A stretch of 64,000 nt of DNA, from contig JAQJVL010000303.1 in NCBI GenBank assembly GCA_035578905.1, forward strand, positions 124,001 through 188,000, in the 5' to 3' direction. A model generated the notes under the pieces. It had not been told where the DNA came from. It was given only the letters and a program-made list of their open reading frames with translations, and did not search any database. The position numbers and the translations under genes are program-made. This DNA is from Stictocephala bisonia. Its lineage: Eukaryota > Arthropoda > Insecta > Hemiptera > Membracidae. Shown piece by piece: positions 14,791 to 64,000 of this stretch. How positions within the stretch are numbered: the first letter of the stretch is position 1; the number at the start of each line of letters is the position of its first letter.

Positions 14791-15189
14791 AGTTGGTTAA
14801 TTTTATTGCACCAAGAATATTTAATCAATTACCTGAATATATAAAAGAAGCACAAAGTAGAAAATTATTTTTAACCCTTTCAGTGCCAACGTCCGGGTAC
14901 CCGGACGTTTTTTAACTGTTCACAAAGTGCCAACGTCCGGTAGGACCCGGACGTTTATAGGTGGTCGCGTAGTGCCAACGTCCGGTTTTCCCGGACGTTT
15001 CGTAAAAAAAATCGTAAAAAAATAAATATAATAATTTTTAGCTTTGAAACTTTAACAATAGTATTAAGAATAATATTCTTTATCCGTTTTCAATATTTAT
15101 AAAGCATTCTAACTGTGTACATTCAGTATATAAAAAGAATAATAAACACATCACAACCGTGATCAAGTCAGCAGCGCTCTCGGTCAGCT

Positions 15190-15382
15190 GGTCTGACGCA
15201 ACGTCATTGTTATTCCTCCAATTCCTCCAATTCAAAAATTCCTGATAGACCGTGAAAAAAATTGCTGTGTTTGCAGTAAGGAAAGTACGCAAAAAGGTGG
15301 CAAAAGGAAGAAGTCCATTTTCATGTGTAGTAAATGTAAGAAAGGCATACATAACAAGTGCCTTAGCAAACACCATTGCTAA
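15190..15382 (+). pseudogene. piggyBac transposase C-terminal Cys-rich domain
   Basis: About 64 codons ending CLSKHHC then stop. Visible zinc-ligand pattern: NCCVCSK, then MCSKCKK, then HNKC and KHHC. This matches the cysteine-rich end of piggyBac transposases, which helps bind the transposon ends. The catalytic part is absent. Confidence 0.75.
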
Positions 15383-15687
15383 AAATATTTTAATTTTTTT
15401 ATTTATCATAAAAATTGTAAATATGTTAGCCTAGTTCATTTTTTTACTATTAATTATATAATATTTATGCAACATGTATGAACTTCATTGAACTTATTTG
15501 GATGGAAATCAATAATAGAATATCCTCATGTATTACCGGTTATTGTAGTGAAAAACTGAAATGCGCCAGAATTTACAAAAATGTGAACCAATTAGTTATT
15601 TTTGAAGCTATGGACCTGAAAATTTGTAATTTATATTCTTAAATGATTGTTTTAATTAGTGAAGTGCACATCTATAACAAACAGATT

Positions 15688-15810
15688 NNNNNNNNNNNNN
15701 NNNNNNNNNNNNNNNNNNNNNNNNNNNNNNNNNNNNNNNNNNNNNNNNNNNNNNNNNNNNNNNNNNNNNNNNNNNNNNNNNNNNNNNNNNNNNNNNNNNN
15801 NNNNNNNNNN
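15688..15810. other. Assembly gap, 123 N
   Basis: Run of N. Both flanks carry AACAAACAGATT immediately beside the gap (15676-15687 and 15811-15822), so the gap may be spurious or hide a tandem. Confidence 0.99.
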
Positions 15811-16202
15811 AACAAACAGATTTTTTTCATCATGGTTAAAAGGCATTCTTTTTGGATAAAAAAAAAAAAAAAAAAATTGGTAAGTACATATATTTTTATA
15901 TAGTGTTAACCATAATATTATATGATTTCTGTTGTTTTATGGTGTTGTGCATACATTTTGGAAAATAACAAAAAAAAATCATTGTTTTACCTTGATAAAT
16001 AAATTAGTTATGATTTTTTTTTAAATAGCTTGCAAAACCGCTTTAAATTGCCCGGCAACATAAGGTAAAACTAGTGAAAAAATGCCCGGCAACATAGGGA
16101 CATTTTTAAAAAAAATGTCCGGCACTGAAAGGGTTAAATATATTGAAAAACTGGTTATTTAGTCTGGATGATGTTGATTTCTTGAGACAAATAATAAGAT
16201 AA

Positions 16203-17216: not shown

Positions 17217-17945
17217 TAAGAGCAGTGTCAATATTTTGGCTGAGAAAATTGGATTCCGCCACAAATCATCGAAGTATTCCAGAAGTATCCTCTAATGTTA
17301 AAGGTGCGTTTAGATAAAGACCTAATTATTTACACTCAAAGTCATATGATCAATTATGGCGCTAATTAAAAATAAGTTACAGTATTCATATTTTAATAAT
17401 TATTTTGTTTGTAATTTGGCTATTAAGAGTAATACTTTAATTTACTAGTGGATAACTATTGTTCAGTCTAAATTTAAACACTAGCAGTATTTCTTTTGTG
17501 ACAAATATATTATTAATTTCCATTGACAATTATTTTTTAATAATATGATATGCAATTACAGTTCAGTATAGTTATTAACAATAGTTTTCTTTCTTAGAGT
17601 GCTAATACCATAACATATACATTGTAGATCGAGACTGACGGTGTGAATCGGTCATATAGTGGCTTGATCCTGTGACACCTTCAAAAATTATAAAGGCCAT
17701 GGTTAAGGACATTTTCGTGGTGCGGCAGTTACTACTTACTTACTTGAGGACTTGATTTCTTCATCGCTGACCAGCGTGCTGGATTGATGGGGTCACTTAA
17801 AGAATTCCATTTTAAAATGGTGTCAAGACCTAAAAATGTCATACTATGAAAGCGTCACAAGTTTAAATACTCATTAAAAACATTAACACATTGAAAGCAA
17901 CATTACATAAAATACACAAGATGGCAGTGGCTATACGTCATCACT
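17217..17945. other. Intergenic, nothing recognised
   Basis: No coding or mobile-element signal I can support. Confidence 0.35.
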
Positions 17946-18635: not shown

Positions 18636-18649
18636 TGGATACACTATAA

Positions 18650-26100: not shown

Positions 26101-29100
26101 TTTATTATTTTGTGTTTACAATAGGCTTTCTGGCTCATCTATTTTTTGCTCTGATATATGAGAGTTTTGTAAGGCCAAATGTCATTATTGTCCAGTATCA
26201 ATTAATTCTAAAAAATTTTTGAGTCCTGTTTTGCAAGGTATGGCAGTATTATCCAAACAAATAGATAGAGAGATATTTCCACTTTTGGACTTGAGTCTAA
26301 CCTAAGGCTTCTGTTACTTCTTTCTTATTAAATTAGTTTTCCTGTATAAACTTTGCAACTTTATTTTGTAAACACTGTAAACAAATATCTCCATTTATTC
26401 AATCACATTCAAAGTGATAAAGTTAGTGAAATTTATGACAGTTAATCATATTTATACTTTCGCAAACTCTACCTTTATGGCTGAAATTCATACATTTGTT
26501 ATTTACTGTCTATCAAGTTAGTAGTATCCTGATTGACTTGTTTCATTTATGCTGCAATTTATTCTAATAATCTTTGCAACAATACCTCATGATTTTCTTG
26601 TAACTTTGAGTTTTTCCGTATTCATTCTTCTGTTACTTCATCTCTCTTTCCTTATCTGAACTTGATTTTTTTTTAATTTCGACTAGAACTTGAGCTAACA
26701 GGACTTGCATTGATTTGAAAGCATGACTTACAGTCTTTTTGACCAGGTTTAATAAAAATCAATATTTTATAGAAAATAATTTATTTTTATAAATATTGCT
26801 GAAATAATCTTTTTAACATATTCAATACATAAAATATTTATTTAAAATAATCTTTATATGAAATTCTGAAAACATTATATTGGTAGTTATTTTATGTCAT
26901 AAGGTATTGGATAAAACATCCAAATCTTGTTAATAACAACTATAAACTCTAATTCCATTCAGGGCTGGATTTTCCATTCCCGGACCTATGGGGGCAAGCT
27001 CCCAGGGGGCGCACGGCCGAGATAAAAAAATTAAAAATATTTATAAATAAAAATAAATAGCTATAATTTGACATTTTTTAAAAATTGATTTTTAAAAAAT
27101 CAGGCTAATAAAGCATTCTGATTTTGAAGTTCATTGGTAATTGTTGGTAAAGTTAAACTATTTTTCAACATTATGCATCAACTTCGTTACAACATTGATC
27201 TCAAACACAGAAAATTGGCTGTAGGGATGTCGTTGAGCGATATGCATCGTATTGCCACTGCCAGCCCCATGCAACTCCCATGTTCCTTGTATAGAGGAGG
27301 GTGACCGTTTTAGTGATGCCAAATAACTACATATTGCTCTGTGATTCCTCATGGCACTGGCTGTCCTCATTCTTTCGATTCTTCCAACTTATTCTCTCCA
27401 TGCTGCTAACAAACTCGAATTCCTCCGCGGAACGGAACGTTTATCGTTCATCCCTCAATAATAAAAATATCAATATAAATGGTGTTTTTCTGGTTTTCCC
27501 TTCAATTTTCCATAAAAGGGTAGGATTTTTAGAGGTATTAAACGGACTGGCACCCTCAAAAATCACAAAACAAGCGGGAGGATTATTGAGTGTGTATTCT
27601 GAAGATCTTGAGCCTGCCGTAGTAGACGAGTGTTTAAATTTAAAATCACTTTTTATGCAAAACACTGAACAGAGCAAAACAAGTATCCCCCTGATTGAGA
27701 TAATCAAGCTTTTGCATCTTTTTGATGCTTTAGATATCTACCCTAACATTGAGATTGCTCTGAGAATGGTTTTATGTGCTCCTGCTACTAACTGCACGGG
27801 AAAAATATCTTTCTCCACTCCCTGGCGTGTAAAGAATTACCTTCGGTCAAGAGCTGGTCAAGATAAACTTTCATCACGGGCACTGCTGAACATCGAGGGG
27901 AGGCTCAGGAGATTCAATAAAGGGATTTACAGCTTTACATGAAATCAGGACTACATAGTATTTGTCTGATTTTCAGTTAATTGAAGACAAGAATGATACT
28001 CAGTTCTCTGCTCTTAACAACACTAAAGGGATAAGAACATATGGGACATTCCCCAATAACATGAGAATAGATATCCAACATGGGAGGGACTTACTGGATA
28101 TCCATTCGCCTTGTTATAAAGGAAGCAGTTTCCAGGTATCCCCAGCGGCCAAACAATCAGTAATCATGTCTAAGATTTACGCAAGCCTACCTCATCATTA
28201 TTGAGCCACAGATCTCCGATCTCTACTCATTACTTAACGAGCCCCTCCCCCTTCTCCCCTTGTACTTGAATTTATGTGACCCACCCCTACACGTACAGTG
28301 GTAGTGACCTGCCTACCCACCTCTACACGTACAGTAGTATACCACTGTACGTGTATGGGTGGGCGGGTGGGTCAATACCACTGTATGTGTATGGGTGGCG
28401 GGTGGGTAAATACACCTGTATGTGTATGGGTGGTGGGTGAGTAAATACACCTGTACATGTATGGGTGGATGGGTGGGTCAATACCACTGTACGTGTATGG
28501 GTGGGTGGGTGGGTCAAAACCACTGTACGTGTATCGTTGGGTGGGTCAATATCACTGTACATGTATGGGTGGGTGGGTGGGTCAAAACCACTGTTGGTGG
28601 GTGGGTCAAAACCACTGTACGTGTATAGGTGGGTGGGTCAATACCACTGTTTGTGTATGGATGGGTCAATATCATTGTACGTGTATGGGTGGGTGGGTGG
28701 TTTTGTTTGTGCTGTATATATTTTAATTTTGACAAAGGCTTTAACCTCTCAACTGCTGTAAACGAGTTAAGTCGTGCGCCGCCGTCTGTCCCGCTGTGCT
28801 ACGCACGACTGAAGTCGTTCCGCCGAACGCGCTCAGTGTGCTGTACACGTATCAAGTCGGTATTGATTATTTCTCCACTTCAACATGCCCACGACATCTA
28901 TGGATACTTTGTTGAACTACTAGCAAGCTCTTTACTAAACAGAGAATAGTTGTTCATTAGTTCTTTATGTTGTATACAGCTGACTGTTGGCCCTGGCAAC
29001 TGAAAGTGGCTGTTTAGTGTTTTGTAATGGCGTCTACATAACGCGATTCGCATCTTGTTACGGAGTCGTAAATTGATAATTTACTGTGTGTTGACGAAGA

Positions 29101-35100: not shown

Positions 35101-38100
35101 TCTGCAGACCCCTTTTCTCTCCAAAATTAGCCAATAATAATTTATGGTCGGTACAAAGTATGAATGATCTACCTATTGATTATGATTGATTGATTAAGTA
35201 TGAATGATCTAGAAATATTGATTAAATCTTTTTACGCCATAAACTATTCTTAGCGCTTCTTTGTTGATTTGTGAGTAAGCTTTTTCTGCTGAGTTTTAGA
35301 CTCTACTAGCAAAACTAATAGGCTTTTCACTAACATCTTTTTAAACTTACCAACTGTTTAAAGACTGCCATAAGCTGTAAGCGTCCTTAATGGATAATTT
35401 AGGCTAATAGTGTTCTAATACATCTGTGGATTCAAGGTTATTTTTAATTATTTGAAAGGCTATCATATGATTTTTTAAATCTTGTATCCGCCAAGGTATT
35501 AACATTATCATACGATGTTACAAACGGTGGTGTGATATTTCTCAAAACAGAATTACAATTAACTCAATGTTTTACACAATTCTTCCTATTTTCATCCACT
35601 TACATATTGTTATGAGGGGTTTGAAGATATTTTATTGTTTAAAAAAAATCAAATTCAATACATATAATGAATTCTCAAATCAATATGCTAGAATTATTTA
35701 TCTGTATTACTGTAGATTTACTGACATACTTTGAATTTCGTAATTTCAACTATATTACCATGAATTCAGGGCTTTATTAATGCCTTAGGGGCATCCCAAA
35801 ATTTCTTACCAGTTTCTGAGGGTCAAGTAACTACCTCTTTTAACTAGGTTGTCCTAGTACAAGTTCCTATTGTAATATCATATAACTGCCTTGTAACTCT
35901 AACTGTATTACGAAAGTGTATGTGTATATTTTAGTGTGTTGCACATAATGTTAAGTCTGAAATTTAATTTCTGAAATATTAAAAAACCAATAGTGGCTTG
36001 GTGTCTCATAAGATACCAGTGTTTTGAAACGTGCCTGTGTAGCAGCGTATCAAATCTGGATGAAATTCAGTGATTATAGATTAAATGATCTAATTTAGAT
36101 ACAAATGATTTATGTGACTTCACAGAGTATATAATGTTTGGCTATATACAGTCATGCAAATCATAATTCTATACTACCTTCTTCCAATATTTAACCATCC
36201 TTTGCTCGGCCAGGATGAGCCTTACATAATTAAATGTTAATAATAATTATGGCTTTATTGTAAAAAAGGTTTTTTATATAAAAAGGGAACTTAGGGGAAC
36301 TAATAATTCCTCTTTTACAGTCAACTGAGGATAGTGAATTACAAAGCCTAATTTACAGAAACATGGAAGTATATAATTAAACTAAAGAAAAACACAACTG
36401 ATTATAGTATATTAAAGAAGTGTTTTCTTCAGTTTAGAGCAATAATTAGGGCAATTAAAGGTAGTTAGAATATAAAGGAGAACCATTAAAGAATAGATAA
36501 ACTGGTTCTCCACCCAAGCCTCATGGTCACCTTCTCTCCTTGGCACCATACATGAGATGGCTCTGATCTAGTTAAAATTGTTCATGTTAATTGACTTAAC
36601 ATTAGCAATGAAAAGGAAAAGAAAATACCTATACTAATATACTAAAACGAACAGAAGTATCTGATACAGGCTAGATAGATCACTTCAAAATATTCATTGG
36701 GTGGGTCAAGTTTACAATTATTTAAAATATAAATGTTTAAAAATTAATGCACCCGTATCTTTCATAACAACAATTGCAATGGTACTAAACCGTGATCTCG
36801 ATCCACTTTTTTCTAGGTCCATTGCTAATAATCCCATATCTCTTATTAACCATAGTAATTAGATGGAAACACAACCCAGTTCCTTTAAATTTGCTTAACA
36901 CATTCGATGCTGAAAAAATATGTTAAAAACATGTCAGACACTAAAATAATATTTTATACCAAAACAATACCTTATATAGTCAGAAAGCAGGGTTGATACA
37001 CCAAATCCAGTTTATGGCCTCAATTCTGGTAGATCAAGGCTTCCGAAGTGATCGTCCGCCGGCGGTGGAGCCGCACATCGCAACGAAACCCATGCGCGCC
37101 GCGAGACGCCTGCCGCAATTAGTTGCGGCAGGTCGCATTCCTGAAGTTGAAATACGCCATACAGGAGTATCATTTCCGATATCAGAATCATCAGATTAAT
37201 AAGAATCAGAGTCATCTGAAGCATTTCCCATCATCTGATGTTAGATTGGGTCATCAACTTCACCATCACTGTCGGCAGGACAAAGTCAGGAGCCGAAGAT
37301 GGCCCAGGAGTTGGTTGAAACATTGCAGAAAAGAATAAAACGCACTATACAAATATATTTACAATATAACACAAATCACAATACAATATAACACAACACG
37401 ATACTAATGTTTCACTGTTATACACAAAAATAAAATGGTAAAACTCCGATGCAAGCCAACTGGCTCAAAATGGCACGATCCACGAACAGCGAACACCGAA
37501 ACGTGACGCGAGACACAGGCAACAATGCAGTGCAAATCCGACCGTTATAAGGCAAGTGGATGGACCACACTGAATTCCACAAACAAGCATTGCTTCGTCA
37601 ACCGCCGGCAACAGTTCCGCTGCGCGCGCAGGCACGCTAACCCCCGCCAACTGGCTCAAAATGGCGCGATCCACGAACGAAGAACAAGGAAATGTGACGC
37701 GAGAAACAGGCTATAATGCGGCGCAAATCCGACCCTTCTAAGCCAAAGGGCTAGGCGACACTGAAGCGTACAAGCCGGTATTGATCCGTCCACCGCCGGC
37801 AACTTATTCGCTGCTCGCGCAAGCACTGCTATCACCCGCGGGCGTGTGACCCGCACTCAATGTGTTAAATAAAATATACATTATTCATTCATTATTAAGA
37901 CGCTGATCGTCAAGATATGGGCGAATGAATGTTATGAATGTAGAGAATGAGAGTAGTCATTGTTACTAAGGTCAACTGTTCCTCAGAAAATCCTATTTAT
38001 AAATAGCCCAATAGCCAGGTCAACTAAGCGACTTACAGCTTTATGTGGAATCCAAACCACGTAGTGTTTGTCTGATTTTCTAATAAGCTTGTATTAGAAA

Positions 38101-52700: not shown

Positions 52701-55700
52701 ACAGTCTATGCCCTGTCAGCTTTTGGGTTAAATTCTCCTACACTGTAAAGTTCAGATTGAATTAAATATTTTTTAAGTTTATTTTTGAATCTTGTAAATT
52801 GTTTAATTTCTTTCCATTCCTCCGGCAATTTATTATAAAAATGTAGGCCCAAATATGAAACTGATGTCTTAAAGTGGGTTGTTCGGTGGGAAGGTATTTC
52901 TAATAGGTGATGATTTCTAGTACTATATTTGTGTTTCTGGTTTTTTTCTTTGAATGAAATATCCTTGTAAACGTAACAAATAACATCAAAAATAAAAATA
53001 CTGTAAACTGTCATAATATTGAATTTTCGGAAATGAGATCTACAAGATTCATTATAATTTAGCTTACCCAAAATTCTTATTGCACATTTTTGTATTTTAA
53101 AAATAAAAATGCACTCGTAACTAAATCTATCAATTACATAGAAGCATTCAGCTAAATAGTAATCAAGTTATTTACCACTTATCAGCTGGAATTGTAATTA
53201 TGAGGATTAGAAAAGTATTTTTGTGTTAATTTTTGCCGTTTTGCCCATTTGACGTCATGGGAAGTGCGCATGATGCCTACCGTCTTCTTTTCTAGGTACT
53301 GTGTTCTGAAGTAAATACTGTACCAAACCTAACCACAACGCACTTTTGCATTATACAGAACCAGTAGATACATACCATACCTAATCTTAGAGTTTATTCA
53401 TTTCATCATGTTTTGAATTACTGAACGCAATAAGCACAATATAAATCAACGTATACCCCACACGAAAAACGGGTCCTCTGCTAGTATCTTTATAACAATA
53501 CCTTATACTAACAGTGTCTATTACTGGTTGGAGTTAAAAAAAGTTGTGTTTTTACTATTGTTGCGTATGAGCATTTATGGTGCATTTTTTAAATACAGTA
53601 GAGAAAAAGGATAGGCATTTTACTTTCTTTAATTGCTTCAAAAAAGGACAAAAATTCAAACAAGAAACAAGAAAATATGGACCTATCCAGGAAATATAAG
53701 ACAGTAATTTCTTTCACTTCGTTCTGAAATGGTCGCATAGTGTTTTGTGCGACATATGTTGTGTCCTTCCATCTCTGCTATGTAATGTGGTCCAACTCAA
53801 TTTTAGAGGGATACTATAACATATTCATGAACAATACTAAAAGTCAAGTATTATTTAGAAGTAGTCGATTGCTTATTGTCATTAACAGCTGTTGTTACTT
53901 CCTTAGCGGTTTTGGAGTATATAACACAAGACTTGCATAAGCGACTACATCTAGCCCTAGCCTGGCTGTATGAAGAGTACAGCTATTCCCAAGGCTTCAA
54001 CAGGCTACCTCCTGCACTGAAGTGCCATGACCAGGAGAACAATTACAACAATCTGTTACGCAACCTCATTTCTGCCATAGTGCACCGACCAGATGTTAAA
54101 GATCGAGAAACGTAAGTGTAACTGAATTAGGGAAATATTGTTAAGTATAAAAGTAATCTTCTGCTTTATGTTTGGTTACAGAAAAAGAATGATGCTCAAA
54201 TATATTAAAGTAACAACAGGTATGTTATACATACATAAAACACTTGTAATACTTTAATTCTGATTATCTTTAATATTAGCTAATCAATAGTGTCTAATTN
54301 NNNNNNNNNNNNNNNNNNNNNNNNNNNNNNNNNNNNNNNNNNNNNNNNNNNNNNNNNNNNNNNNNNNNNNNNNNNNNNNNNNNNNNNNNNNNNNNNNNNT
54401 TACTGGCAAGTTCTATGGACTACTGGTTTCCCTCCCTCTGGAGGGGGAGGGGGGAGGGAGAGAGAGGGGGGCATTGAAAATTTGTGAGATTATGTGTTTA
54501 TTTTGTGTATGTTACTACTACTCTGGTGTTAGTGAACTTGTCTTCTAAGGTAATTTTGCTGATATCCTATCTCTCCAATATACTAATTACATTTTTAAAT
54601 TTAATTGTTTTTTTTGTGTTTGTATTTTGAGGTATATCTGTTAACACGTTCGCTGCGGGTCGCGCCGTGCGGCGCGACCTCGAACTAGCCGGGGCTCTGA
54701 ACACGCCGTGCGGCGCTGTCTGTCCCTAGCAACTAAATTCAGTCTGCCGTGAGGCAGTGTTTGCGTATGGTCACAGTGTGTGTTGTCCGTGTTTTCGGTA
54801 TGGATCGAGCTGTTTCGTGGTGGTTTTCGTTTCTTGATATCTCTTCTGGTTTCTGACATACATGCTAGTTATTTTGTGGTTTATATACATATTATTTATT
54901 GTTGTTTATGAATAGTTTACAGTGTTATTTTGATTAAAATATGGCTTCTACATCCCGTAAACGTCCCCAGCGTCATGTGAGTGATTCTAGTGACTCTGAT
55001 ACTTCCGTCTCATGTAATGAGGAAAATGGTAATACGGACAATGAAACATTTTCGACTGATTCGGAGGACGATTGTGATTATGATATTACACCTCCTGTTT
55101 GGTCAATTCATACATCTGGATTGAAACAAATACAGTTTGTGAGGGAAGAAAAATTTCTAATTCCATTACCAGGTACAGGCAAGCCTATTGATTTTTTCAA
55201 TGTTTTATTGGATGAAAATATTTTGTCTATTATTGTAGAACATACTAACCGTAATGCTGTAGATGTGTTTACAAATAACTCTAAACTGACTCCCAAATCT
55301 AGGATTACTAAATGGAAAGACATTACCGTCAATGAACTAAGAACATTTATAGGCCTATTTATTCACACTGGAAGTATAAAGCTCAATCGTTTGAATGACT
55401 ATTGGAAGTCACATTGGCTTTATTCTCTCACTTGTTTTTCCAGATACATGTCACGTGACAGATTTTTGAACATTTTACGTTGCCTACACTTCAAAGATCC
55501 TAATGCCCAATATGCTAACGAGAGAATTGCAAAAATTCAACAATTTGTTGATTACTTCAATGCAAAAATGGAGAATACATATTACCCTCAGAGAGAACTG
55601 TCACTTGACGAGTCCATGGTCCTATGGCGTGGTAGGCTTCTTTTCAGACAGTATCTAAAGGGAAAAAAGCATAAATACGGAATCAAATTGTACACATTGA

Positions 55701-58700
55701 GTGACCCCCACGGATTGATTTTGAAATTTATTGTTTATTGTGGTGTCTTGGATGATCTTGGAGGGAAAGGCCATGCAGCGAATGTTGTCTTGAAGCTTAT
55801 GGAAAATAAACTGGGGGTTGGACATAGTCTTTACATGGACAACTACTACAACTCATTTGATCTTACTGCAAAGTTGTTAGCCAGAGATACGTATTGTACA
55901 GGCACATTACGTAATGATCGAAAACATAATCCTAAAGATGTTGTGGCTGCAGTATTGAAAAAAGGCGAAACTATTGCCAGATACGCCGAAGGTGTTTGTA
56001 TCGGTAAATGGAGGGACAAACGCGTTGTTACATACATTTCCTCTGAGTATGAAAATGAAATAGTCCAGTCCATAAACAAGAGGAATGTTATGCGTGAAAA
56101 GCCTCTTCCAATTGTAAAGTATAACGGCTTTATGAAGGGAGTTGACAGAGGCGATATGATGATGGCTTATTATCCAGTGGAACGTAAAACCCTTCGCTGG
56201 TATAAGAAGATCGCCATGCATATCATTCATATGCTACTACTAAATTCACACCTGCTATACAACACTTATAATACCAATACTGGGAAACACAAAATATCGT
56301 TTTATAATTTCCGAATGAGTGTCTTGGAGGAACTGTTGCCCAAACCAGCTGAGCCGCTAGTAGCTTTGCCGTTGCGTGGCACGGATCACACCCTCAATAC
56401 TCTTGGACCACGCCCTGGGAAACCCAACTGGTCACAAAGAAAGGATTGCCGACAATGTCGAGCAAATGGAATTAGGAAACAAACAAAATATGTCTGTGAG
56501 GCATGCCCAGGTTCTCCAGCCCTCTGCCCTGGTGCATGTTTTGACACATTTCACAAGAACTAAATGAAGGCCCTTGTGCACTTGTATATATTTGTAAATA
56601 TATATTTTTTTAACCAATTATTTATTTATTCAAAGTATTACGCCATAGACTTATTAGAACGCATATTAGTGACGATAAAGTGGACAAATAGTAGATTGAA
56701 GACCCAATGGACAGTCACGAGAGGGCGCCATGGCCTGACCACGCCGTGCGGCGTGCTACTTTCAAGATGGCTGAAACTCATTATCCTGGGGTTTATAAAC
56801 TGAAAACAACACTAAACACTGGTTTTGACACCTCAAGGTATGTTATTATTTAATAAAAATATTCAGGGTGGTGGGTAGGTTTACCATGTATATTCAGCAG
56901 TGAACGTGTTAACTTAGGAGTGAGTATATGAAAGCAAGACAGCTATTAGATAGTTACTAAGTAAATTATTAATACTAATTTAAACTGCAAACAGTGTTAT
57001 TAGTACACCTGATATAGATTGTAAATAATGTAGATAGCACCTTGACGCGGTTGTCACTGGAAAATATATATTCTAGTTATGACACCGGCCGCTTAAGCCT
57101 AAGTTCTAAAATTATTAGTTCACCTAATAATATATCATGCATTGCTATTCAGGTGATGGCTAATCTCATATTATAAACAATATTACAAAGCAACTTACAA
57201 GCATTTATATTACATAATAAAGTAAGTTATAAATTGCAGTTTTGCTTGTTTAAGTAATAGATTTAAAGAGCAAACACTATAATTACGCTAAAAAAACTTT
57301 TAATGCAAGTTCTATTATGAGTACTCAGTAGTACTGAGAGTAATAGATCTAAAAAGAAGTTGGTGGAGTTGCACATACCTGTTTTAGACAAAGAACAGTA
57401 AACATGTACAATCAAACTTGATTTGTTACCTTGGAAAGTTGACTCATCATTTGATAGGCCAATTTTTGTTTTACTCTTGATTTTTCACCAGCAATTTTTC
57501 GTTTCTTTACTTATGTGCAAAGCAATGTTAGCACACTCTTTGTCTGAAACGCCATTAAGTTCTTGCAAATAAATGTCTGTTTCAAAATATTTTTAAGACT
57601 TATTTTCCCTAACACCTTTATACACAACTTGAATGAAATATTTTTTCAGTAGATTGTTTTTTGTGAGCATGCTGTTTAAGTACAAATTTTTCCTACGCTT
57701 CATTTTTACTTTCATTAACAACTTTGACAGCAGCTCTATGACCGGCAATTTCTTTGTGTACAACATTTTTCCCTTAGCAAAGTGAGACCCATCCCCCACC
57801 AAACTGGAAGTCATGCCATACTGAGGGATGGCTCAAAACGAGAAAAGCGTTAGGATCACGGGCGGCAGTTAGATGGTTAAATCATAACTCGGAGCGGAAA
57901 AGCTATTTAGTTCAAAAGAAAGAAGTAATAATTTTGGCAGAAGGCCACAATATTTTCTCAAATAAAACACTCAAAATAAACATAACACAAAATTAGCAAA
58001 AGCTACAAATACCGAAAATGACAACAGACGTACCTATCTGCAGGATTACTAGAAACACAATATTTTAGAGAAATTTAAATTGAACAATTTAGAATTGAAC
58101 AAAACAAATGACCGGCAATTTAGCCCACAGCCCATGATTCCACCGAGGCCGAAGAGTCAGCCGGAATCACTGGGCAGCTCCGAATTAAAGAAAAGTGAAA
58201 ACGTTAAAAAATATTCCTCTTTTGGTGAAAAGTTAAAAAATTAAGCAATTTAAAAGAAAATATAGCACGGTACCGTTTTATTAAAACCTACTTAACAATA
58301 CAATCAACAAAATAAATATCACAAACCAACTTAACCGCTTGGCCTAACTAGAAAATTTAAAAAATCCTATAATTTAAACAGTATAAATAGAAAATCTTAA
58401 ATACACACAAAATATTTAGAAGTAACGGATATAAATTAAAAAAATTTAACAGTAGAGGCCTAAAAAAATAAAATTTAAAAGAATATAACAATAAAATAAA
58501 CAAATTTAAGATCAATAACAATACATTTTTCAAACGTGTAACAAAACTGTTTCAAGCCTATAAAACTTTGGCTGGCTGTTTTCAATCATTAACACTGTTA
58601 CGTTGATTTTTGTTGTAGGCCGAGGCCTAGTGGAGATTTTCTTTCTCTTTTTTTTCCTTGGATAATTTTCATCCCTCAGCTCAGCCACCGGGAATAAATG

Positions 58701-61700: not shown

Positions 61701-64000
61701 TCCAATATGAGAGGCAAATGAGTGTTATGAGTGTAGATGAACGAGTGTAGTCATTGTTACTAACTACCGTCGACTGTTTCTCAGAAAGAGCTTTTTATTA
61801 ATAGCCTAATAGCTAAGGCAACTAGGGATCTACAGCTATATGTAGGATCTGAACCATGTAGTTAATGTCTGACATACAGCTAATTGACAAGCCTGACATG
61901 TAGTTCTCTTCCCTACACAACACCTGAACCTTGACTACCATCCAATATGGACAACCCGGACTTCTCTATTAGTGTCCACGTCAATGGTAACCATTGAGTG
62001 GATGCTGTGTTGGTATTAACAGGACAGAGTATAGAACCTATCGCCTACAATCTCCTCAACACTTTGTCTCCAAGTAGCTGGGTTACATCATTTCACCAGT
62101 GATCACTTTTTTGGTAATTTCAATTTAATATTACTGATTGCATATAAAAACAAAAAGATCCTTCAAACACAGTGGGAATGGATCTTCAGACCATCAGATT
62201 TTTCCTATTATCCAAAACATTTATATTCTATGGTTAAGTATAAGAGAGGACTATGAAGTCCTAATCCGACCATTTGTATGAAAAACAAATTCAATAAAGG
62301 CGTTTCTCAATTATTTTAGTCTTAATTGTTTACACAAATCTTTTTATTTGATTGTATGATTATTACTAAACTCTTGTATCAATTTATGTGTCCCATAAGT
62401 ATAACAGTAAAGGTTCAAGTCAAGTCTTTATTTGCACGTAACATTGGAAATAACATGTTACAAGGTAACAACCAACTGGTGCAGGCTAATAAAACGATTC
62501 TTTTCATTTTTTTCATGTAAATTTGTAATTATTAGTATTAATCAAATCAGTTCAAAATATTCATGCTGTTTTAATTTTACTAGTACTGTTGATGTAAATA
62601 GATACTTGTCTTATATTTTACTGCTGAAGGATTTAACGTAAAACTTCAGCCACAATATATTTACATAACTTAACACGTTCAGTGTGGGTGGACCGTATAC
62701 GGTCCACCGCCGGCCGGGCGCTGGTGGCGCGTGGACCGGGCCCATACCACGCTACACTGTTGTTGCTATGCAGTCAGTGTGAGCTCAGCTCTTGCGCGAG
62801 GTAGACTTTACGTTGGCCGCTATACAAATGTGAACCGTTCTATATTTTTGCGTTTTCCGTTTTTATCTATCGTTTTTTCGAGCGGAGTTTTACAATTAAT
62901 TATTGATGTAATTTAGTGATTTCTTCATGTAAATAAGTTTGTTCTTTATGTAAATAAGTGTGTTTAGTGTATATTATTGTAGTATTTAGTGTAATTTTTA
63001 CTGTTGAAACATGGCTGACAACACTGTTGATGACTTTGACTTGAGTGACGACATTATTACAAGTGAAGATTCTGACACCGAAAGTGACGAAATTGATGAT
63101 TATGATGAAGTTTTGAACCTTATTTGGTGCAACAACACTGCTGGACTCAAAAAATTAACTTTTTGAAGGACAATAAGCTATTGGTGGCCATACCTGGTGA
63201 TTGCTCACCTATTTATTGGTTTTCCAGCATCCCAAGGGGCTGATGGACCGTATCCAGACCACAACTTATGACGTCATAAACAACTTTTTCCCATGCTACA
63301 ACCAACTTCGTTTTGCTGTTTTTGGGCTGTCTATACCTTATGAAAAGTAAAATTAAATTTTATAGTACTTAGTTTCCCGGGTCGGTTAGAGTGTTTTTAC
63401 TATAGCACTGAACGTGTTAAATTGTGAACTGTAATACCAATAGGAGTAGTAAAAAAGTTGCTAGTTTAAATGATATAATTCACATGTGCACTCTACTAAG
63501 TGATAGCAAACATCATATAAGACTGGTTAAGGCAATTAGCAGGTGCAGTGATGAGCAAGGGATAAGCTTAACGTCTTGTAATATATGTACATAGGGTTTA
63601 TACCCAGTCACAGTAAAACAAATGTTTAAGGAATACCTGATACTCTTGGTGTTCATTTATCAATTAACTAAAACAATCTACATATTCATTATTTGTGTCT
63701 TAATTATTTCTTTTAATTTGTTGTAATATTTAGTGTAAACTTCTATTCTAAATGGTTGACACAAATCAAGAATCCTCAATTCATAATTTAATAATCAGTG
63801 TAGTTTAACTCTTGTATACTTGTACTGCTTTAGATAGGAAATGAACTGAATGGTTGTGTTTTAGGTTAGCAAGCACATACGTCCAGACAGGAGCTGATGT
63901 GAAGCGAGCCATCCTGAGGCTGGTGGAGCAACCTGTCCGTGCTATGGGCATGCATTCACCTGAGCTGCTCAAACTGGTAGAGGAGTGTCCCAAGGGTTCA
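23066..64000 (+). CDS. Sym: Symplekin, scaffold of pre-mRNA 3'-end processing (partial, 13 exons)
   Basis: Symplekin bridges cleavage/polyadenylation factors (CPSF73-CPSF100 and CstF64) in the nucleus. It acts on poly(A) mRNAs and, in animals, histone mRNAs, and its N-terminal HEAT domain binds the Ssu72 phosphatase. About 766 codons are present. The start at 23066 gives [15 protein letters not shown]. Exons 2-6 encode the HEAT-repeat domain (about residues 32-330), 7-9 a variable acidic/proline-rich linker, 10-12 the middle, and 13 enters the conserved C-terminal domain ([20 protein letters not shown]). All junctions keep phase except 54111/61078, where an exon is missing. The gene continues past 64000. 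Recognised from conserved stretches such as [18 protein letters not shown] and [17 protein letters not shown]. Confidence 0.96.
23888..24081 (+). CDS. Sym: Symplekin exon 2
   Basis: Acceptor TTTTCAG, donor GTAATT, ends phase 2. Encodes [20 protein letters not shown] and the first HEAT helices to GFMEEA. Confidence 0.95.
24082..25860. other. Intron 2 of symplekin
   Basis: 1.8 kb, holding the long-TIR element described at 24621-25261. The rest is unremarkable. Confidence 0.8.
24621..25261. mobile_element. Fold-back element with about 245-bp inverted arms
   Basis: Left arm about 24621-24865 and right arm about 25017-25261 are imperfect inverted copies. Shared blocks include GAACAGCTATCA, GAGATCGGTTGGCAT, GTGAACTATTGGAT and AAAACTGATAC. 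No ORF. The superfamily is unknown, and no target duplication could be fixed. Confidence 0.75.
25861..26094 (+). CDS. Sym: Symplekin exon 3
   Basis: Acceptor GATACAG, donor GTAAGA, ends phase 2. Encodes [18 protein letters not shown] through [18 protein letters not shown] repeats. Confidence 0.95.
27301..27942 (+). pseudogene. hAT transposase relic (C-terminal dimerisation region)
   Basis: [20 protein letters not shown] and [20 protein letters not shown] match the C-terminal hAT dimerisation motif layout (YPN...LR.LL..P......STL...K.YLRS.....RLS.LALL.IE). The catalytic core is not visible and the upstream codons look like filler. It is followed by a short SINE-like piece (27930-27978). Confidence 0.7.
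28278..28703 (+). repeat. 36-bp minisatellite array II, G-quadruplex-rich
   Basis: About ten units of the form ACCACTGTACGTGTATGGGT then GGGYGGGTGGGTCAAT, 32-36 bp each. The first two units are inverted. The junction is TACACGTACAGT facing ACTGTACGTGTA at 28324-28355. Several units contain four G3 runs with one-base loops. It is transcribed with symplekin in the G-rich sense. Long open frames here are by-products of the repeat. Confidence 0.93.
28745..29248 (+). mobile_element. piggyBac-like MITE, 504 bp
   Basis: TTAA at 28741-28744 and 29249-29252, perfect 14-bp TIR CCTCTCAACTGCTG. Near 29020-29160 a degenerate acidic piggyBac N-terminus can be read (start ATGGCGTCT, later [15 protein letters not shown]). 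An imperfect palindrome (ACGAGTTAAGTCGT) is centred 24 bases inside the left TTAA, and ACGACTGAAGTCGT recurs near 28807. Confidence 0.85.
29503..29650 (-). repeat. LINE 3' tail, candidate
   Basis: (AAT)n followed by TTTATTG-type sequence, similar in style to 52530-52680 and 62420-62545. No coding part. Confidence 0.35.
30198..31520. mobile_element. Non-autonomous hAT element, 1.3 kb
   Basis: Perfect 8-bp target duplication AATGTATT (30190-30197 and 31521-31528). TIRs CATGGCCGGTT and CAAGGCCGGTT. The interior has no transposase; an open frame at 31164-31622 crosses the right end and is not protein-like. Confidence 0.85.
32588..32743 (+). CDS. Sym: Symplekin exon 4
   Basis: Acceptor TACCCAG, donor GTGAGT, ends phase 2. 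Encodes [20 protein letters not shown] and DISL-like block [17 protein letters not shown]. Confidence 0.95.
32893..33112. repeat. Dispersed SINE-like repeat, copy 2, with tRNA-like head
   Basis: The left part shares GTGTAGATGAGCGAGTGGAG with the other copies. On the minus strand 33112-33031 has TAGGTCAGCTGGTTAAAGC (A box) and AGTTTGATCCC (B box), a tRNA-derived arrangement. Confidence 0.6.
33250..34600 (-). pseudogene. LINE reverse transcriptase relic
   Basis: Degenerate RT fragments in several frames. 33847-34128 holds the template-contact region ([20 protein letters not shown]). 33462-33719 holds [19 protein letters not shown], the RT motif just before the catalytic box. Many stops. A different copy from 18650-20290. 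Confidence 0.7.
34950..35470 (-). pseudogene. Gypsy-type RT/RNase H relic
   Basis: Minus-strand pieces resemble the RNase H region: [30 protein letters not shown]. Then a diverged segment in shifting frames down to 34950. Old, with in-frame stops, and unrelated to the intact-looking element at the left edge. Confidence 0.65.
35470..36894. other. Intron 4 sequence, mostly unrecognised
   Basis: Only a short hAT-end-like piece, CAGGGCTTTATTAATGCC then TTAGGGGCATCCC, is seen near 35768. Confidence 0.35.
36899..37864 (-). mobile_element. piggyBac-like relic, 966 bp
   Basis: TTAA at 36895-36898 and 37865-37868. Imperfect 13-bp TIRs CACATTCGATGCT and CACATTGAGTGCG. The minus strand near 37150-37230 keeps a decayed acidic N-terminus with [14 protein letters not shown], equivalent to [14 protein letters not shown] in the intact gene at 54941. 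So the right end is the 5' end; it has an imperfect palindrome (TCAC...GTGA) at the usual offset. A separate hairpin, CCTGCCGCAA and TTGCGGCAGG, lies near 37108-37131. Confidence 0.75.
37456..37837. repeat. Imperfect 191-bp tandem duplication inside the piggyBac relic
   Basis: Both copies begin CCAACTGGCTCAAAATGGC (37456 and 37647) and share GTGACGCGAGA, GCAAATCCGACC and CCGCCGGCAAC. Confidence 0.8.
37880..38095 (+). repeat. Dispersed SINE-like repeat, copy 3
   Basis: Matches 22556-22735 (inverted) and 61690-61890. It ends AACCACGTAGTGTTTGTCTG, a block also present at 27930-27978. Confidence 0.75.
38137..38285 (+). CDS. Sym: Symplekin exon 5
   Basis: Acceptor TTACAG, donor GTGAGT, ends phase 1. 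Encodes [20 protein letters not shown] and [20 protein letters not shown]. Confidence 0.95.
38750..40140 (+). mobile_element. Penelope-like element fragment
   Basis: Within 39616-39830 a frame reads [12 protein letters not shown] then [23 protein letters not shown] and GPPNLNIR, the C-terminal part of a GIY-YIG-type domain of Penelope-like retroelements. A hammerhead-ribozyme candidate follows at 39984-40030. The segment 39045-39250 is low-complexity AATTTTTTAAAG repeats. RT is missing. Left limit approximate. Confidence 0.6.
39984..40030 (+). ncRNA. Hammerhead ribozyme candidate
   Basis: Core CTGAAGA (39992-39998), a GC-rich stem (GGGGCC AGT GGCCCC), then GAAA (40015-40018). Outer bases TTAGTGA (39985-39991) can pair with TCACTAA (40023-40029). 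Penelope-like elements are known to carry minimal hammerheads of this type. Folding has not been computed. Confidence 0.5.
40313..40467 (+). CDS. Sym: Symplekin exon 6
   Basis: Acceptor TTTTAG, donor GTACGT, ends phase 0. Encodes [19 protein letters not shown] and [11 protein letters not shown], among the best-conserved parts of the HEAT domain. Confidence 0.96.
40468..41627. other. Intron 6 of symplekin
   Basis: AT-rich, 1.16 kb, no recognisable element. Confidence 0.6.
41628..41858 (+). CDS. Sym: Symplekin exon 7
   Basis: Acceptor TTTAAG, donor GTAAGA, phase 0 both sides. Encodes [18 protein letters not shown], a basic linker with a KRIKRS-like nuclear signal, then [19 protein letters not shown]. 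Confidence 0.95.
41975..42115 (-). repeat. LINE/SINE 3' tail fragment
   Basis: CTTTATTTTAGTGGCG...GGACTATACAGTCCTCTC resembles, inverted, the segment at 62240-62300 (GAGAGGACTATGAAGTCC ... AATAAAGG). Confidence 0.45.
42789..43496 (+). pseudogene. Harbinger accessory protein relic (Myb/SANT-like)
   Basis: Starts [13 protein letters not shown] and continues through [20 protein letters not shown] and, after frame changes, [14 protein letters not shown]. Harbinger elements usually encode a Myb/SANT-like partner that binds the ends and imports the transposase. The fold here is inferred from position and general pattern only. Several frameshifts. Confidence 0.45.
43771..43957 (+). pseudogene. Second, inverted fragment of Harbinger transposase
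   Basis: Encodes [20 protein letters not shown] on the plus strand and is an inverted near-copy of 44140-44324. It ends in three copies of a roughly 30-bp tandem (ATATGAATATGTAATTCCTC ..., 43945-44025). Confidence 0.75.
44020..44560 (-). pseudogene. Harbinger transposase relic (HARBI1-like)
   Basis: The minus strand reads [20 protein letters not shown], then a helix-turn-helix-like [18 protein letters not shown] and, after one stop, [20 protein letters not shown] and [18 protein letters not shown] carries the first catalytic Asp and RKG..S.NVQ is a hallmark of the family. The protein stops near ...SVYAE and lacks the rest of the DDE domain. Confidence 0.85.
45197..45467. repeat. 271-bp near-perfect hairpin (130-bp arms, 11-bp loop)
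   Basis: Arms 45197-45326 and 45338-45467 differ at one position that I can see. The loop is AGTAGAGGGAG. Each arm contains CTGAAGAAAATGCCTGTGGT followed by GTCGAAAATT, hammerhead-like core spacing. Related single-arm pieces occur at 49060-49140 and 54470-54595. Probably the end of a Penelope-like element in inverted duplicate (inference). Confidence 0.9.
45960..46400 (-). pseudogene. pogo/Tigger transposase relic (CENP-B-like N-terminus)
   Basis: Minus-strand reading: [32 protein letters not shown] (first helix-turn-helix), then [12 protein letters not shown] and [20 protein letters not shown] (CENP-B-type DNA-binding half). In-frame stops are present, and the DDE domain is not found downstream. 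Confidence 0.8.
47180..47344 (+). CDS. Sym: Symplekin exon 8
   Basis: Acceptor TTGTCAG, donor GTTAGT, phase 0. Encodes [20 protein letters not shown] and [20 protein letters not shown]. Confidence 0.96.
47590..47890 (-). pseudogene. mariner transposase relic (C-terminal)
   Basis: Minus-strand pieces [15 protein letters not shown] and [13 protein letters not shown] correspond to the mariner block HPPYSPDLAPSDYHL, which holds the last catalytic Asp of the DD34D triad, and to the C-terminal helix. Frame changes and stops. Ends not located. Confidence 0.65.
48667..48846 (+). CDS. Sym: Symplekin exon 9
   Basis: Acceptor TTTTCAG, donor GTAAGC, phase 0. Encodes an acidic run [12 protein letters not shown], a proline run APPVPPPPT and [15 protein letters not shown]. 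Confidence 0.95.
48847..49788. other. Intron 9, left part
   Basis: 49060-49140 resembles the hairpin arm of 45197-45467. 49150-49380 has a weak LINE-like RT flavour (near 49350, [13 protein letters not shown]) that I do not annotate further. Confidence 0.4.
49789..51392. mobile_element. Tigger/pogo-like non-autonomous element, 1.6 kb
   Basis: TA duplication at 49787-49788 and 51393-51394. Ends CAGTACAACTTTGATAAC and (reverse complement) TAGTGGAACCTTGATAAC. Both sides hold repeated GAGTTAT/GTTATCAAGG-type motifs typical of Tigger ends. No transposase is readable. Confidence 0.75.
52173..52314 (+). CDS. Sym: Symplekin exon 10
   Basis: Acceptor TTATCAG, donor GTAAGA, ends phase 1. Encodes [20 protein letters not shown] and [19 protein letters not shown]. 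Confidence 0.95.
52530..53080 (-). pseudogene. LINE C-terminus and 3' UTR
   Basis: Minus ORF 52706-53071 reads [32 protein letters not shown] and [20 protein letters not shown], the conserved C-terminal end of Jockey-type RT proteins, open to its stop. The 3' UTR follows to about 52530. A 5'-truncated insertion. Confidence 0.8.
53889..54111 (+). CDS. Sym: Symplekin exon 11
   Basis: Acceptor TTAACAG, donor GTAAGT, ends phase 2. Encodes [31 protein letters not shown] and [14 protein letters not shown]. Its phase does not fit the next visible exon at 61078. Confidence 0.95.
54300..54399. other. Assembly gap, 100 N
   Basis: Round size suggests unknown length. Most likely place for the missing symplekin exon. 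Confidence 0.99.
54470..54595 (+). repeat. Copy of the hairpin-arm repeat
   Basis: GAAAATTTGTGAGATTATGT through GCTGATATCCTATCTCTCCA matches one arm of 45338-45467. It lies just right of the gap. Confidence 0.8.
54645..56908 (+). mobile_element. piggyBac-like element, apparently complete, 2.26 kb
   Basis: TTAA at 54641-54644 and 56909-56912. TIRs CACGTTCGCTGCGG and CACGTTCACTGCTG. A 22-bp palindrome adjoins the left TIR (54658-54679; GGTCGCGCCG and CGGCGCGACC around TG). Further CGCCGTGCGGCG palindromes lie at 54702-54717 and, on the right, 56740-56755. One intact transposase ORF. All parts needed for an autonomous element appear to be present. Confidence 0.93.
54941..56563 (+). CDS. piggyBac-type transposase, intact, 540 aa
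   Basis: Excises and inserts TTAA-flanked DNA by a DDD nuclease. N-terminal 50 residues Ser/Asp/Glu-rich, then [13 protein letters not shown]. The catalytic Asp residues appear at D223 ([10 protein letters not shown]), D300 ([10 protein letters not shown]) and D402 ([10 protein letters not shown]), the piggyBac order. The C-terminal cysteine-rich domain (from C503) has [16 protein letters not shown] and ALCPGACF. Length is close to known piggyBac transposases (about 590 aa). No stop or frameshift, in contrast to the other four TTAA elements here. It sits in a symplekin intron in the same orientation. Domestication is possible but the intact ends argue for a mobile copy. Confidence 0.95.
   Translation: MASTSRKRPQRHVSDSSDSDTSVSCNEENGNTDNETFSTDSEDDCDYDITPPVWSIHTSGLKQIQFVREEKFLIPLPGTGKPIDFFNVLLDENILSIIVEHTNRNAVDVFTNNSKLTPKSRITKWKDITVNELRTFIGLFIHTGSIKLNRLNDYWKSHWLYSLTCFSRYMSRDRFLNILRCLHFKDPNAQYANERIAKIQQFVDYFNAKMENTYYPQRELSLDESMVLWRGRLLFRQYLKGKKHKYGIKLYTLSDPHGLILKFIVYCGVLDDLGGKGHAANVVLKLMENKLGVGHSLYMDNYYNSFDLTAKLLARDTYCTGTLRNDRKHNPKDVVAAVLKKGETIARYAEGVCIGKWRDKRVVTYISSEYENEIVQSINKRNVMREKPLPIVKYNGFMKGVDRGDMMMAYYPVERKTLRWYKKIAMHIIHMLLLNSHLLYNTYNTNTGKHKISFYNFRMSVLEELLPKPAEPLVALPLRGTDHTLNTLGPRPGKPNWSQRKDCRQCRANGIRKQTKYVCEACPGSPALCPGACFDTFHKN
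56913..57330. other. Intronic, nothing recognised
   Basis: No coding or repeat signal seen. Confidence 0.4.
57330..57830 (-). pseudogene. hAT-like transposase relic
   Basis: Minus-strand frames give [38 protein letters not shown] and TNFFLDLLL. The DEST...N.SSL.V pattern is typical of the hAT catalytic core start (ZBED5/ZMYM-like). The preceding open segment 57593-57814 would be its upstream part. Stops present, ends not located. Confidence 0.45.
57840..59690. other. A-rich intronic region, unassigned
   Basis: The plus strand is strongly A-rich, with GC-richer islands at 58130-58200, 58660-58860 and 59500-59640. The motif GACCGGCAATTT occurs twice (near 57740 and 58109). The open frame 58530-58847 (-) is not recognisable. 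It might be the untranslated region of a retroelement. Confidence 0.3.
59930..60340 (-). pseudogene. Penelope-like element relic with GIY-YIG motif
   Basis: The minus strand reads [20 protein letters not shown] followed by [19 protein letters not shown], i.e. the GIY and YIG signatures of the endonuclease. Preceded by [20 protein letters not shown]. Frame interrupted. RT not visible. Confidence 0.75.
60365..60475. repeat. AT-rich inverted repeats
   Basis: Several TAAAAAAATCCG/CGGATTATA blocks in both orientations form a low-complexity palindromic stretch between the Penelope relic and minisatellite III. Confidence 0.6.
60482..61005 (+). repeat. 36-bp minisatellite array III, ending 72 bases before a symplekin exon
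   Basis: Units of the CTGTATGGGTGGGCGGGTGG type, interrupted at 60597-60735 by unrelated AT-rich sequence. The left edge has CCATACAC facing GTGTATGG (60483-60510). Later units read AACACCATGCTTGTATGGG and CACTGAGCCTGTATGGGTGG. Confidence 0.92.
61078..61319 (+). CDS. Sym: Symplekin exon 12
   Basis: Acceptor TTCTGTAG, donor GTTAGT, starts phase 0 and ends phase 2. Encodes [40 protein letters not shown] and [18 protein letters not shown]. Confidence 0.95.
61690..61890 (+). repeat. Dispersed SINE-like repeat, copy 4
   Basis: GTGTAGATGAACGAGTGTAG, CCTAATAGCTAAGGCAAC, TAGGATCTGAACCATGTAG. Same family as 22556, 32893 and 37880. Confidence 0.75.
61891..62669. repeat. Intron 12 left part with LINE 3' tails
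   Basis: 62240-62300 and 62420-62545 (CAAGTCAAGTCTTTATTTGC ...) look like LINE 3' ends in different orientations. The rest is unrecognised. Confidence 0.4.
62674..63416 (+). mobile_element. piggyBac-like MITE, 743 bp
   Basis: TTAA at 62670-62673 and 63417-63420. Perfect 11-bp TIR CACGTTCAGTG. 22-bp palindrome at 62687-62708 (GGTGGACCGT, then ATACGGTCCACC). A related GATGGACCGTATCCAGAC block lies near the right side (63241-63258). Confidence 0.9.
63011..63166 (+). pseudogene. piggyBac transposase N-terminal remnant
   Basis: 51 codons and a stop: an acidic start [20 protein letters not shown], then [15 protein letters not shown], which aligns with [14 protein letters not shown] of the intact transposase. 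The rest of the gene is deleted. Confidence 0.8.
63865..64000 (+). CDS. Sym: Symplekin exon 13 (continues beyond window)
   Basis: Acceptor TGTTTTAG. It completes the Glu codon of exon 12 and encodes [37 protein letters not shown] and VEECPKGS, the start of the conserved C-terminal region. Open to the last base. Confidence 0.95.

What the first reader, a model, noticed from the sequence alone, without database searches (positions are those of the whole stretch)
14875..63416. Five TTAA elements share an inverted repeat at one fixed offset from the 5' TTAA, with unrelated sequence
In three piggyBac-like elements a 22-bp palindrome starts exactly 14 bases after the 5' TTAA: 14888-14909 (AACGTCCGGG/CCCGGACGTT), 54658-54679 (GGTCGCGCCG/CGGCGCGACC) and 62687-62708 (GGTGGACCGT/ACGGTCCACC). 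The elements at 28745 and 36899 (5' end on its right, minus strand) have imperfect inverted repeats centred at the same position. The 3' end of the 54645 element lacks one. Position and length are kept but sequence is not, so arms have changed together. This suggests a dimeric transposase-binding or DNA/RNA hairpin element that co-evolves with each transposase. I do not know it as a described piggyBac feature.
Basis: seen in the sequence. Interest (0 to 1): 0.78.

Follow-up and report, generated by a model that had tools for sequence, protein, structure and literature searches.

The report
Paired docking sites in piggyBac ends
The palindromes are real and are most likely the docking sites for the paired zinc-finger tails of piggyBac-type transposases; nearly every family sampled from this genome has its own version at the same distance from the end, usually repeated about 42 bases further in, and it seems to change together with one small loop of the protein.

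Summary
Confirmed at the stated coordinates and far above chance. In 32 five-prime ends (one per cluster) the mean at centre 24.5 is 6.0 of 9 pairs; other centres average 2.43, maximum 3.12. Counting either end, 32 of 33 clusters have the palindrome at 24.5 or 25.5. It is not undescribed: Trichoplusia ni piggyBac and piggyBat have a palindrome there, bound by a dimer of the transposase cysteine-rich domain, CRD (passages). Not seen in print in my searches: (1) in 22 of 26 five-prime palindromic ends the module recurs 41-45 bp inward, mostly with the family's own sequence (piggyBat does this too); (2) five families have it on the 3' side of the gene; (3) half-site sequence covaries with one CRD loop, the best of 34 windows, which holds the residues that contact the piggyBat palindrome. 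Pairing 1.5 bases from the dyad leaves no room for a hairpin loop. The dimer-binding, co-evolving idea is supported; the hairpin and 'not described' are not. Binding was not measured. Genome-wide counts were not possible: the genome machine stopped answering.

The parts
14871..14874 (+). E1 5' TTAA
   Evidence: element 14871-16137 by matching 13-base ends CCCTTTCAGTGCC
14888..14909 (.). E1 palindrome P1, bases 14-35, centre 24.5, 11 of 11 pairs
14932..14955 (.). E1 second module P2 (AACGTCCGG...CCCGGACGTT); its AGTGCC box starts 44 bp after the first
   Evidence: sequence; best recurrence offset 44, 15 of 25 identical,
14977..14999 (.). E1 third module P3; its AGTGCC box starts 45 bp after the second
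   Evidence: sequence; centre 114.0, 7 of 9 pairs
16098..16120 (-). E1 3'-end palindrome GGACATTTTTTTTAAAAATGTCC, centre 25.0, 8 of 9 pairs: the only window element with one at both ends
28758..28779 (.). E2 imperfect palindrome, bases 14-35, centre 24.5 (core ACGAGTTAAGTCGT), 6 of 9 pairs
28801..28822 (.). E2 second module, centre 67.5 (offset 43), 7 of 9 pairs
37830..37851 (-). E3 imperfect palindrome (5' end on the right, minus strand), centre 24.5, 7 of 9 pairs
54641..56912 (+). E4, complete element with matching TTAA-flanked ends
54658..54679 (.). E4 palindrome P1, bases 14-35, centre 24.5, 10 of 11 pairs
54699..54720 (.). E4 probable second module (offset 41, 16 of 25 identical, 5 of 9 pairs)
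54941..56563 (+). E4 transposase, 540 aa: DDE_Tnp_1_7 plus C-terminal zf-Tnp_2 (CRD)
62687..62708 (.). E5 palindrome P1, bases 14-35, 11 of 11 pairs
62730..62751 (.). E5 probable second module (offset 43, 14 of 25 identical, 6 of 9 pairs)

Best explanation
The palindrome is the docking site for the dimer of C-terminal cysteine-rich domains (CRDs) of the element's own transposase. The transposase core reads the terminal bases (TIR plus the G-rich box around bases 10-15); [quoted passage not shown] The fixed distance follows from the protein: both parts are bound by one transposase dimer. Most families sampled here carry a second copy about 42 bp inward, where an inner, non-catalytic dimer would bind to help join the two ends, as in piggyBat. 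Because a base change in one half-site weakens one CRD contact and a change in the CRD loop weakens both, arms and loop drift together, giving each family its own sequence at a constant position. Shown here: position, dyad symmetry, one-end placement, tandem copies with the family's own sequence, covariation with the loop. Shown by others for piggyBac and piggyBat: CRD dimer on the palindrome, DNA bend; for piggyBat, the role of the inner dimer. Inferred: that these particular transposases bind these palindromes, and that the covariation reflects base contacts.
For: Position: Chen 2020 reports the CRD dimer on bp 17-33 with the minor groove narrowed around bp 25 (passages); Hickman 2025 reports GCGGGA at bp 11-16, 55-60, 99-104, each followed by an imperfect palindrome, and two CRDs on the first (section 7 and passages). 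Here 21 of 32 five-prime ends have their best centre between 18 and 60 at 24.5, and 3 of 32 at 25.5. Tandem copies at 41-45 bp in 22 of 26, shuffled mean 0.18, maximum 2; P2 half-site matches its own P1 at 6.95 of 8 bases against 3.06 for other families, own best or tied in 21 of 22. Protein: E4 has zf-Tnp_2, and its CRD aligns to that of piggyBat by sequence (second stretch, 18.2 bits, i-Evalue 0.0065). Covariation: the paper names R543 and E545 as contacting C19, G-19, C-20. The matching columns against base 20 rank 1st and 7th of 270 column-by-base tests (22 rows), 1st and 4th (21 rows). Rows with R and D/E there have C19-G20 in 7 of 7, others in 3 of 15 (Fisher 0.0007; 27 rows: 7 of 7 and 3 of 20, 0.00014). 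Sliding five-column scan: best of 34 windows is that loop in all four settings; loop given rest of CRD, partial Mantel 0.366, p 0.0003 (22 rows) or 0.246, p 0.015 (27 rows), for bases 18-21.
Against: No binding was measured. Base 19 shows no clear association with either contact column (ranks 50 and 62 of 270 with 22 rows, 55 and 98 with 21 rows). The same RKQT loop goes with GCG in E4 and GCT in L081; NKRT goes with GCA in L023 and, at centre 25.5, TAC in L027, so the loop does not decide alone. Other column-base pairs far from the loop also rank high (column 42 with d 1.5 is 2nd, column 19 with d 2.5 is 3rd). I saw the loop pattern by eye before the formal tests, so one search is not blind; one search scans all windows but uses the same rows. 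The rows are related by descent; the rest of the CRD serves as the only control for that, and for the longer span (bases 16-23) the rest keeps a small signal of its own (0.176, p 0.036 with 22 rows; 0.142, p 0.044 with 27). In the scan of all 28 rows the top pairs were elsewhere; I ascribe this to one clade with ATATAT centres. L022 has its palindrome at 22.5 and L050's 5' end seems to belong to another element.
Confidence: 0.9

Rival explanations
1. The palindrome acts as a hairpin or cruciform (DNA), or as an RNA hairpin in a leader transcript, and structure rather than sequence is recognised.
For: Arms covary between families: paired fraction 0.756 observed, 0.365 when right arms are re-dealt. 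One group discusses non-B DNA at such repeats for PGBD5 (passages).
Against: Pairs are kept to 1.5 bases from the dyad (0.97), and above chance even at 0.5 (0.63 against 0.35), leaving no loop; 4 of 15 mismatched cells are G-T, a share of 0.27 against 0.17 when re-dealt, too few to favour RNA. The second module repeats the family's own sequence, 6.95 of 8 bases, which pure structure would not need.
Confidence: 0.04
2. It is the operator of an unrelated regulator (host factor or transposase autoregulation at the promoter) rather than a part of the transposition end.
For: In 25 of 31 families with both ends read it lies upstream of the transposase gene only.
Against: Five of 31 families have it on the 3' side of the gene at the same distance from the TTAA; the distance is fixed to the end, not to the gene (TTAA to the start of the open reading stretch varies from 245 to 936 bp in the pairs picked).
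Confidence: 0.04
3. Shared ancestry or chance: few independent families, palindromes inherited from one ancestor or produced by G+C-rich ends.
For: The transposases are homologous and a loose half-site skeleton is shared.
Against: 29 distinct half-sites in 30 rows; shuffling the same bases gives at most 3 of 32.
Confidence: 0.02

Closest known systems
piggyBat (Myotis lucifugus) left end, G1-P1, G2-P2, G3-P3
   Same: G-rich box then palindrome at the same place; repeated inward (44 bp there, 41-45 and mostly 42 here); palindrome on one end only; probably the same CRD type (zf-Tnp_2 match; sequence alignment through the CRD).
   Different: Palindrome sequence differs in nearly every family sampled here; a second module is common, a third seen in few (E1, E2, L027); five families have the palindromic end on the other side of the gene.
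Trichoplusia ni piggyBac 19-bp internal repeat
   Same: Palindrome centred about 25 bp from the TTAA on the left end, bound by the CRD dimer.
   Different: There the same repeat occurs on both ends, further in on the right end, and the CRD fold differs from piggyBat's (passages); here 30 of 31 families with both ends read have it on one end at 24.5 or 25.5, E1 among them, though E1 has a different palindrome at centre 25.0 of its 3' end.
Inner inverted repeats (IIR) and subterminal inverted repeats (STIR) of piggyBac-like elements
   Same: Terms for inverted repeats near piggyBac-like ends; IIRs have differing sequences (passages of PMC12324416).
   Different: Described there for both ends; no fixed centre or link to CRD sequence in the passages I saw.

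Membership tests
piggyBac superfamily element | TTAA at both flanks with short terminal inverted repeats | tested here: met
   all five window elements
piggyBac superfamily element | transposase of the DDE_Tnp_1_7 family | tested here: met
   E4: 299.6 bits against cut-off 22.4. E1, E2, E3 and E5 hold no listed ORF of 150 aa or more, so for them the test rests on their ends
piggyBat-type end | palindrome centred about 25 bp from the TTAA after a G-rich box | tested here: met
   palindrome: E1, E3, E4, E5 clearly, E2 imperfect; the box was judged by eye only
piggyBat-type end | tandem modules about 44 bp apart | tested here: met
   E1 at 44 and 45 bp; E2 at 43; E3, E4 and E5 weaker (14, 16 and 14 of 25); 22 of 26 ends overall
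piggyBat-type end (E2-E5) | no palindrome on the other end | tested here: met
   3' ends of E2-E5: 3 or 4 of 9 pairs
piggyBat-type end (E1) | no palindrome on the other end | tested here: not met
   8 of 9 pairs at centre 25.0 on its 3' end
piggyBat-type transposase (E4) | CRD of the piggyBat (C1-like) type | tested here: inconclusive
   zf-Tnp_2 28.8 bits, cut-off 24; weak sequence alignment to the 9c0f CRD (18.2 bits); model range aligned to 9c0f ends at 540 but at rmsd 7.5, and the CRD was not folded or searched alone
T. ni piggyBac-type ends | same 19-bp palindromic repeat on both ends | tested here: not met
   looked at centres 24.5-25.5 for both ends, and one search scanned 18-60: no shared centre in 3' ends
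piggyBac CRD-dimer binding site | bound by the CRD dimer of the cognate transposase | not testable with these tools
   needs a protein-DNA binding assay

The most novel reading that the evidence does not exclude
One genome holds a radiation of some 30 piggyBac-like families in which a single CRD loop and the palindrome it reads have changed in step, giving a readable recognition code (acidic residue at the piggyBat-545 position with G at base 20, arginine mostly with A, lysine mostly with T) and so a natural set of transposases that ignore each other's ends; in some lineages the palindromic end has switched to the other side of the gene.
Probability: 0.5. Interest if true: 0.75.

Novelty: new member of a known kind. 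Interest (0 to 1): 0.58.

Why it matters
The feature itself is known from two model elements. A survey cited in PMC8086355 (passage) files piggyBat among elements with simple ends, so palindromes of this kind can go unnoticed; in the families sampled here they are the rule. If the loop-base covariation holds, it makes the DNA specificity of piggyBac transposases predictable, would help in choosing sets of transposases that do not act on one another's ends, and gives a test of how transposase and ends stay matched while both change.

Tried and rejected
Hairpin or cruciform reading: rejected on dyad-proximal pairing. Palindromes confined to the 5' side of the gene: rejected when six clusters lacking one at the 5' end or with a false 5' end (L033, L044, L047, L071, L076, L081) proved to have it at the 3' end. 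Plain Mantel of whole CRD against half-site: no signal (0.11, p 0.13). MI scan of all 28 rows gave its top pairs outside the loop; it also held the piggyBat row with one padded base that should be G as I recall the sequence, and that row was left out. Search of further ends in the DNA held, L001-L008 excepted (323,780 bases): 64 end-like sites, only 2 not in the family table, neither palindromic. Relatives in viral contigs and in bacterial/archaeal genomes: none confirmed.

How ends were chosen, and rows dropped. The rules use only bases 1-13 and the distance to the gene, but I had seen the whole ends when I set them. L011, L014, L015 had no pair by rule; L012 and L013 were dropped because the rule picked a wrong TTAA (their family is L019); 13 of 60 upstream stretches gave no accepted end; L020's 3' end was taken from a pair outside the distance rule; L081 was dropped from the 5' count as a false end (6 of 13). 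L022 and L050 were left out. The CRD table (27 rows) leaves out L042, L048 and L052 (no CRD found by the pattern), L050 (same CRD as L028, so its 5' end probably belongs to another element) and near-duplicates (L009, L017, L022, L024, L082); L014 and L015 have a CRD but no ends. L020 and L063 come from one end cluster but have different CRDs. In some searches the 22-row set further leaves out L044, L047, L081, L018, L019. 80 of the 116 scored transposase matches were read (a further one, L005, was held but not analysed), and those 116 are the best of 11,868 first-look candidates, so the sample leans to one branch. A held-out test of the code on further families was planned and could not be run.

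Full report
What was checked. The window lies in a 1.68-Gb assembly. Among the 120 listed relatives of the E4 transposase, those that carry a visible organism name come from leafhoppers and other Hemiptera, so the host is probably a hemipteran insect (inference). All five elements exist with TTAA on both sides and matching ends. The three 22-mers sit at bases 14-35 as stated; E2 and E3 have imperfect ones at the same centre.

Independent sample. A search with DDE_Tnp_1_7 gave 116 scored matches out of 11,868 first-look candidates. I read DNA at 80 of the 116: 20 as stretches of up to 10 kb and 60 as 701-bp upstream stretches, plus 1151-bp downstream stretches for 20 of these 60. The rules for choosing ends use bases 1-13 and the distance to the gene, not the palindrome region, though I had seen the ends when I set the rules. 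With the five window elements this gave 67 five-prime ends in 33 clusters; one cluster's 5' end (L081) was later seen to be a false pick.

Position. In 32 five-prime ends the mean is 6.0 of 9 pairs at centre 24.5; all other centres from 18 to 60 (25.0 and 25.5 left aside) average 2.43, s.d. 0.23, maximum 3.12. At least 7 of 9 pairs at 24.5 or 25.5 occur in 23 of 32, against a shuffled mean of 0.14 and maximum of 3 in 1000. In 31 three-prime ends the figure is 5 of 31 (shuffled mean 0.20, maximum 2).

One end only. With both ends read in 31 families and a threshold of 6 of 9 at 24.5 or 25.5, 25 have it at the 5' end only, 5 at the 3' end only (L033, L044, L047, L071, L076), none at both, and L022 at neither (its palindrome is at 22.5, by eye; its relative L051 has it at 24.5). 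Two further clusters have one end read: L055 (5', 9 of 9) and L081 (3', centre 25.5, read by eye from the listing). So 32 of 33 have it at one end. Limits: E1 has an additional 3' palindrome at the whole-number centre 25.0 (8 of 9), and the 5' ends of L033 and L071 score 6 of 9 at 25.0. L050 counts as a cluster here although its 5' end seems to belong to another element.

Symmetry without fixed sequence. Arms re-dealt between families pair at 0.365, s.d. 0.026, maximum 0.449; observed 0.756 (32 rows). By distance from the dyad (30 rows): 0.63 at 0.5, then 0.97, 0.87, 1.00, 0.97, 0.90, 0.83, 0.97 from 1.5 to 7.5, 0.63 at 8.5, and 0.37-0.40 beyond. So the constrained site is about bases 16-33, which is where the piggyBac CRD dimer sits (bp 17-33). 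Tight pairing next to the dyad excludes a hairpin loop and fits two protein subunits on duplex DNA.

Tandem modules. In 26 five-prime palindromic ends the 25-base module (box plus palindrome) has its best recurrence at +41 to +45 with at least 14 of 25 identical in 22 (12 of them at 42); shuffling gives 0.18 on average, maximum 2. The four others are E2 (equal scores at 43 and 85), L017 and L019 (75 and 74), and L020 (none). P2 half-sites match their own P1 at 6.95 of 8 bases and other families' P2 match it at 3.06. The five 3'-side palindromes show no such recurrence near 42. E1 has three modules 44 and 45 bp apart, which is the piggyBat arrangement (bp 11, 55, 99). Forty-two bp is four turns of B-DNA, so successive dimers would face the same side (inference).

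Link to the protein. In the piggyBat structure R543 and E545 contact C19, G-19 and C-20 (passage). Entry numbering of 9c0f is six below the sequence index used (worked out), which puts these residues at R and E of RSET. In 27 CRD/half-site rows, R with D or E there goes with C19-G20 in 7 of 7, the rest in 3 of 20 (Fisher 0.00014); with one member of the ATATAT clade and without the two CCCTTT-type rows, 7 of 7 and 3 of 15 (0.0007). The residue matching E545: D/E with G20 in 7 of 7, R with A20 in 4 of 6, K with T20 in 3 of 5 (22 rows; in 27 rows R with A in 5 of 7, K with T in 3 of 6). Sliding a five-column window along the CRD, the best of 34 correlations with the half-site is at piggyBat RSETR in all four settings tried (22 or 27 rows; bases 18-21 or 16-23), r 0.27-0.45. 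The rest of the CRD adds nothing for bases 18-21 (partial r -0.014 and -0.08) and a little for 16-23 (0.176 and 0.142). This supports co-evolution at the contact loop, but it is a small, related sample, base 19 gave no clear signal, some pairs outside the loop also rank high, and identical loops sometimes go with different bases.

Possible identity with piggyBat. The recalled sequence agrees with the paper's numbering of the three GCGGGA boxes, but I could not look the sequence up, so this is a lead only.

Literature seen. PMC7351741 passages; PMC11707139 section 7 and passages; PMC13405395 passages; PMC12324416 passages; PMC8086355 passages; PMC3212995 passages, not relevant. Not held: PMC13461360, PMC5381638, PMC5861402; the first two are superfamily-wide surveys according to passages and may contain some of this. 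Searches for a comparative account; none of the listings showed one by title or abstract start, which is weak evidence given what is not held.

Verdict. An accurate observation of a known kind of site, with a largely right guess at its role. The new part is the family-wide regularity: same distance, own sequence, tandem 42-bp pitch, one end whose side can switch, and covariation with the contact loop.

Noticed in passing
28741-29252: E2 is a 512-bp non-autonomous copy that keeps a short piece resembling the start of a coding region with early stops (by eye); bases 16-30 of its 5' end equal those of the piggyBat left end as recalled. A search for an autonomous relative did not complete.
   Followed up: partly
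L102, L103, L104, L108, L097, L099: Families in which the palindromic end lies downstream of the transposase gene; four of them (L102, L103, L104, L108) share an ATATAT centre (centre 25.5), and the 5' ends of three (L033, L044, L047) carry an ATTTT..AAAAT repeat further in (by eye).
   Followed up: partly
L009 and L016, 3' ends: The 3' end carries CGCGGACC, one half-site of the family's own 5' palindrome, at the same distance from the TTAA (by eye); possibly a single-CRD site.
   Followed up: no
L017, L018, L019: CCCTTT-type families: palindrome at 24.5 though the C-terminal Cys motif differs (L019 has no zf-Tnp_2 match), and the module recurs at 74-75 rather than 42 bp in L017 and L019.
   Followed up: no
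15688-15810: Run of N (assembly gap or withheld stretch) inside E1.
   Followed up: no
870-3617 (minus): Two ORFs with reverse transcriptase/RNase H and integrase domains, probably a Ty3-like retrotransposon.
   Followed up: no
27301-27942: ORF with a hAT C-terminal dimerisation domain, probably a hAT transposon remnant.
   Followed up: no
10004-12585 (minus): Three ORFs of 263-322 aa in a row without any Pfam match.
   Followed up: no
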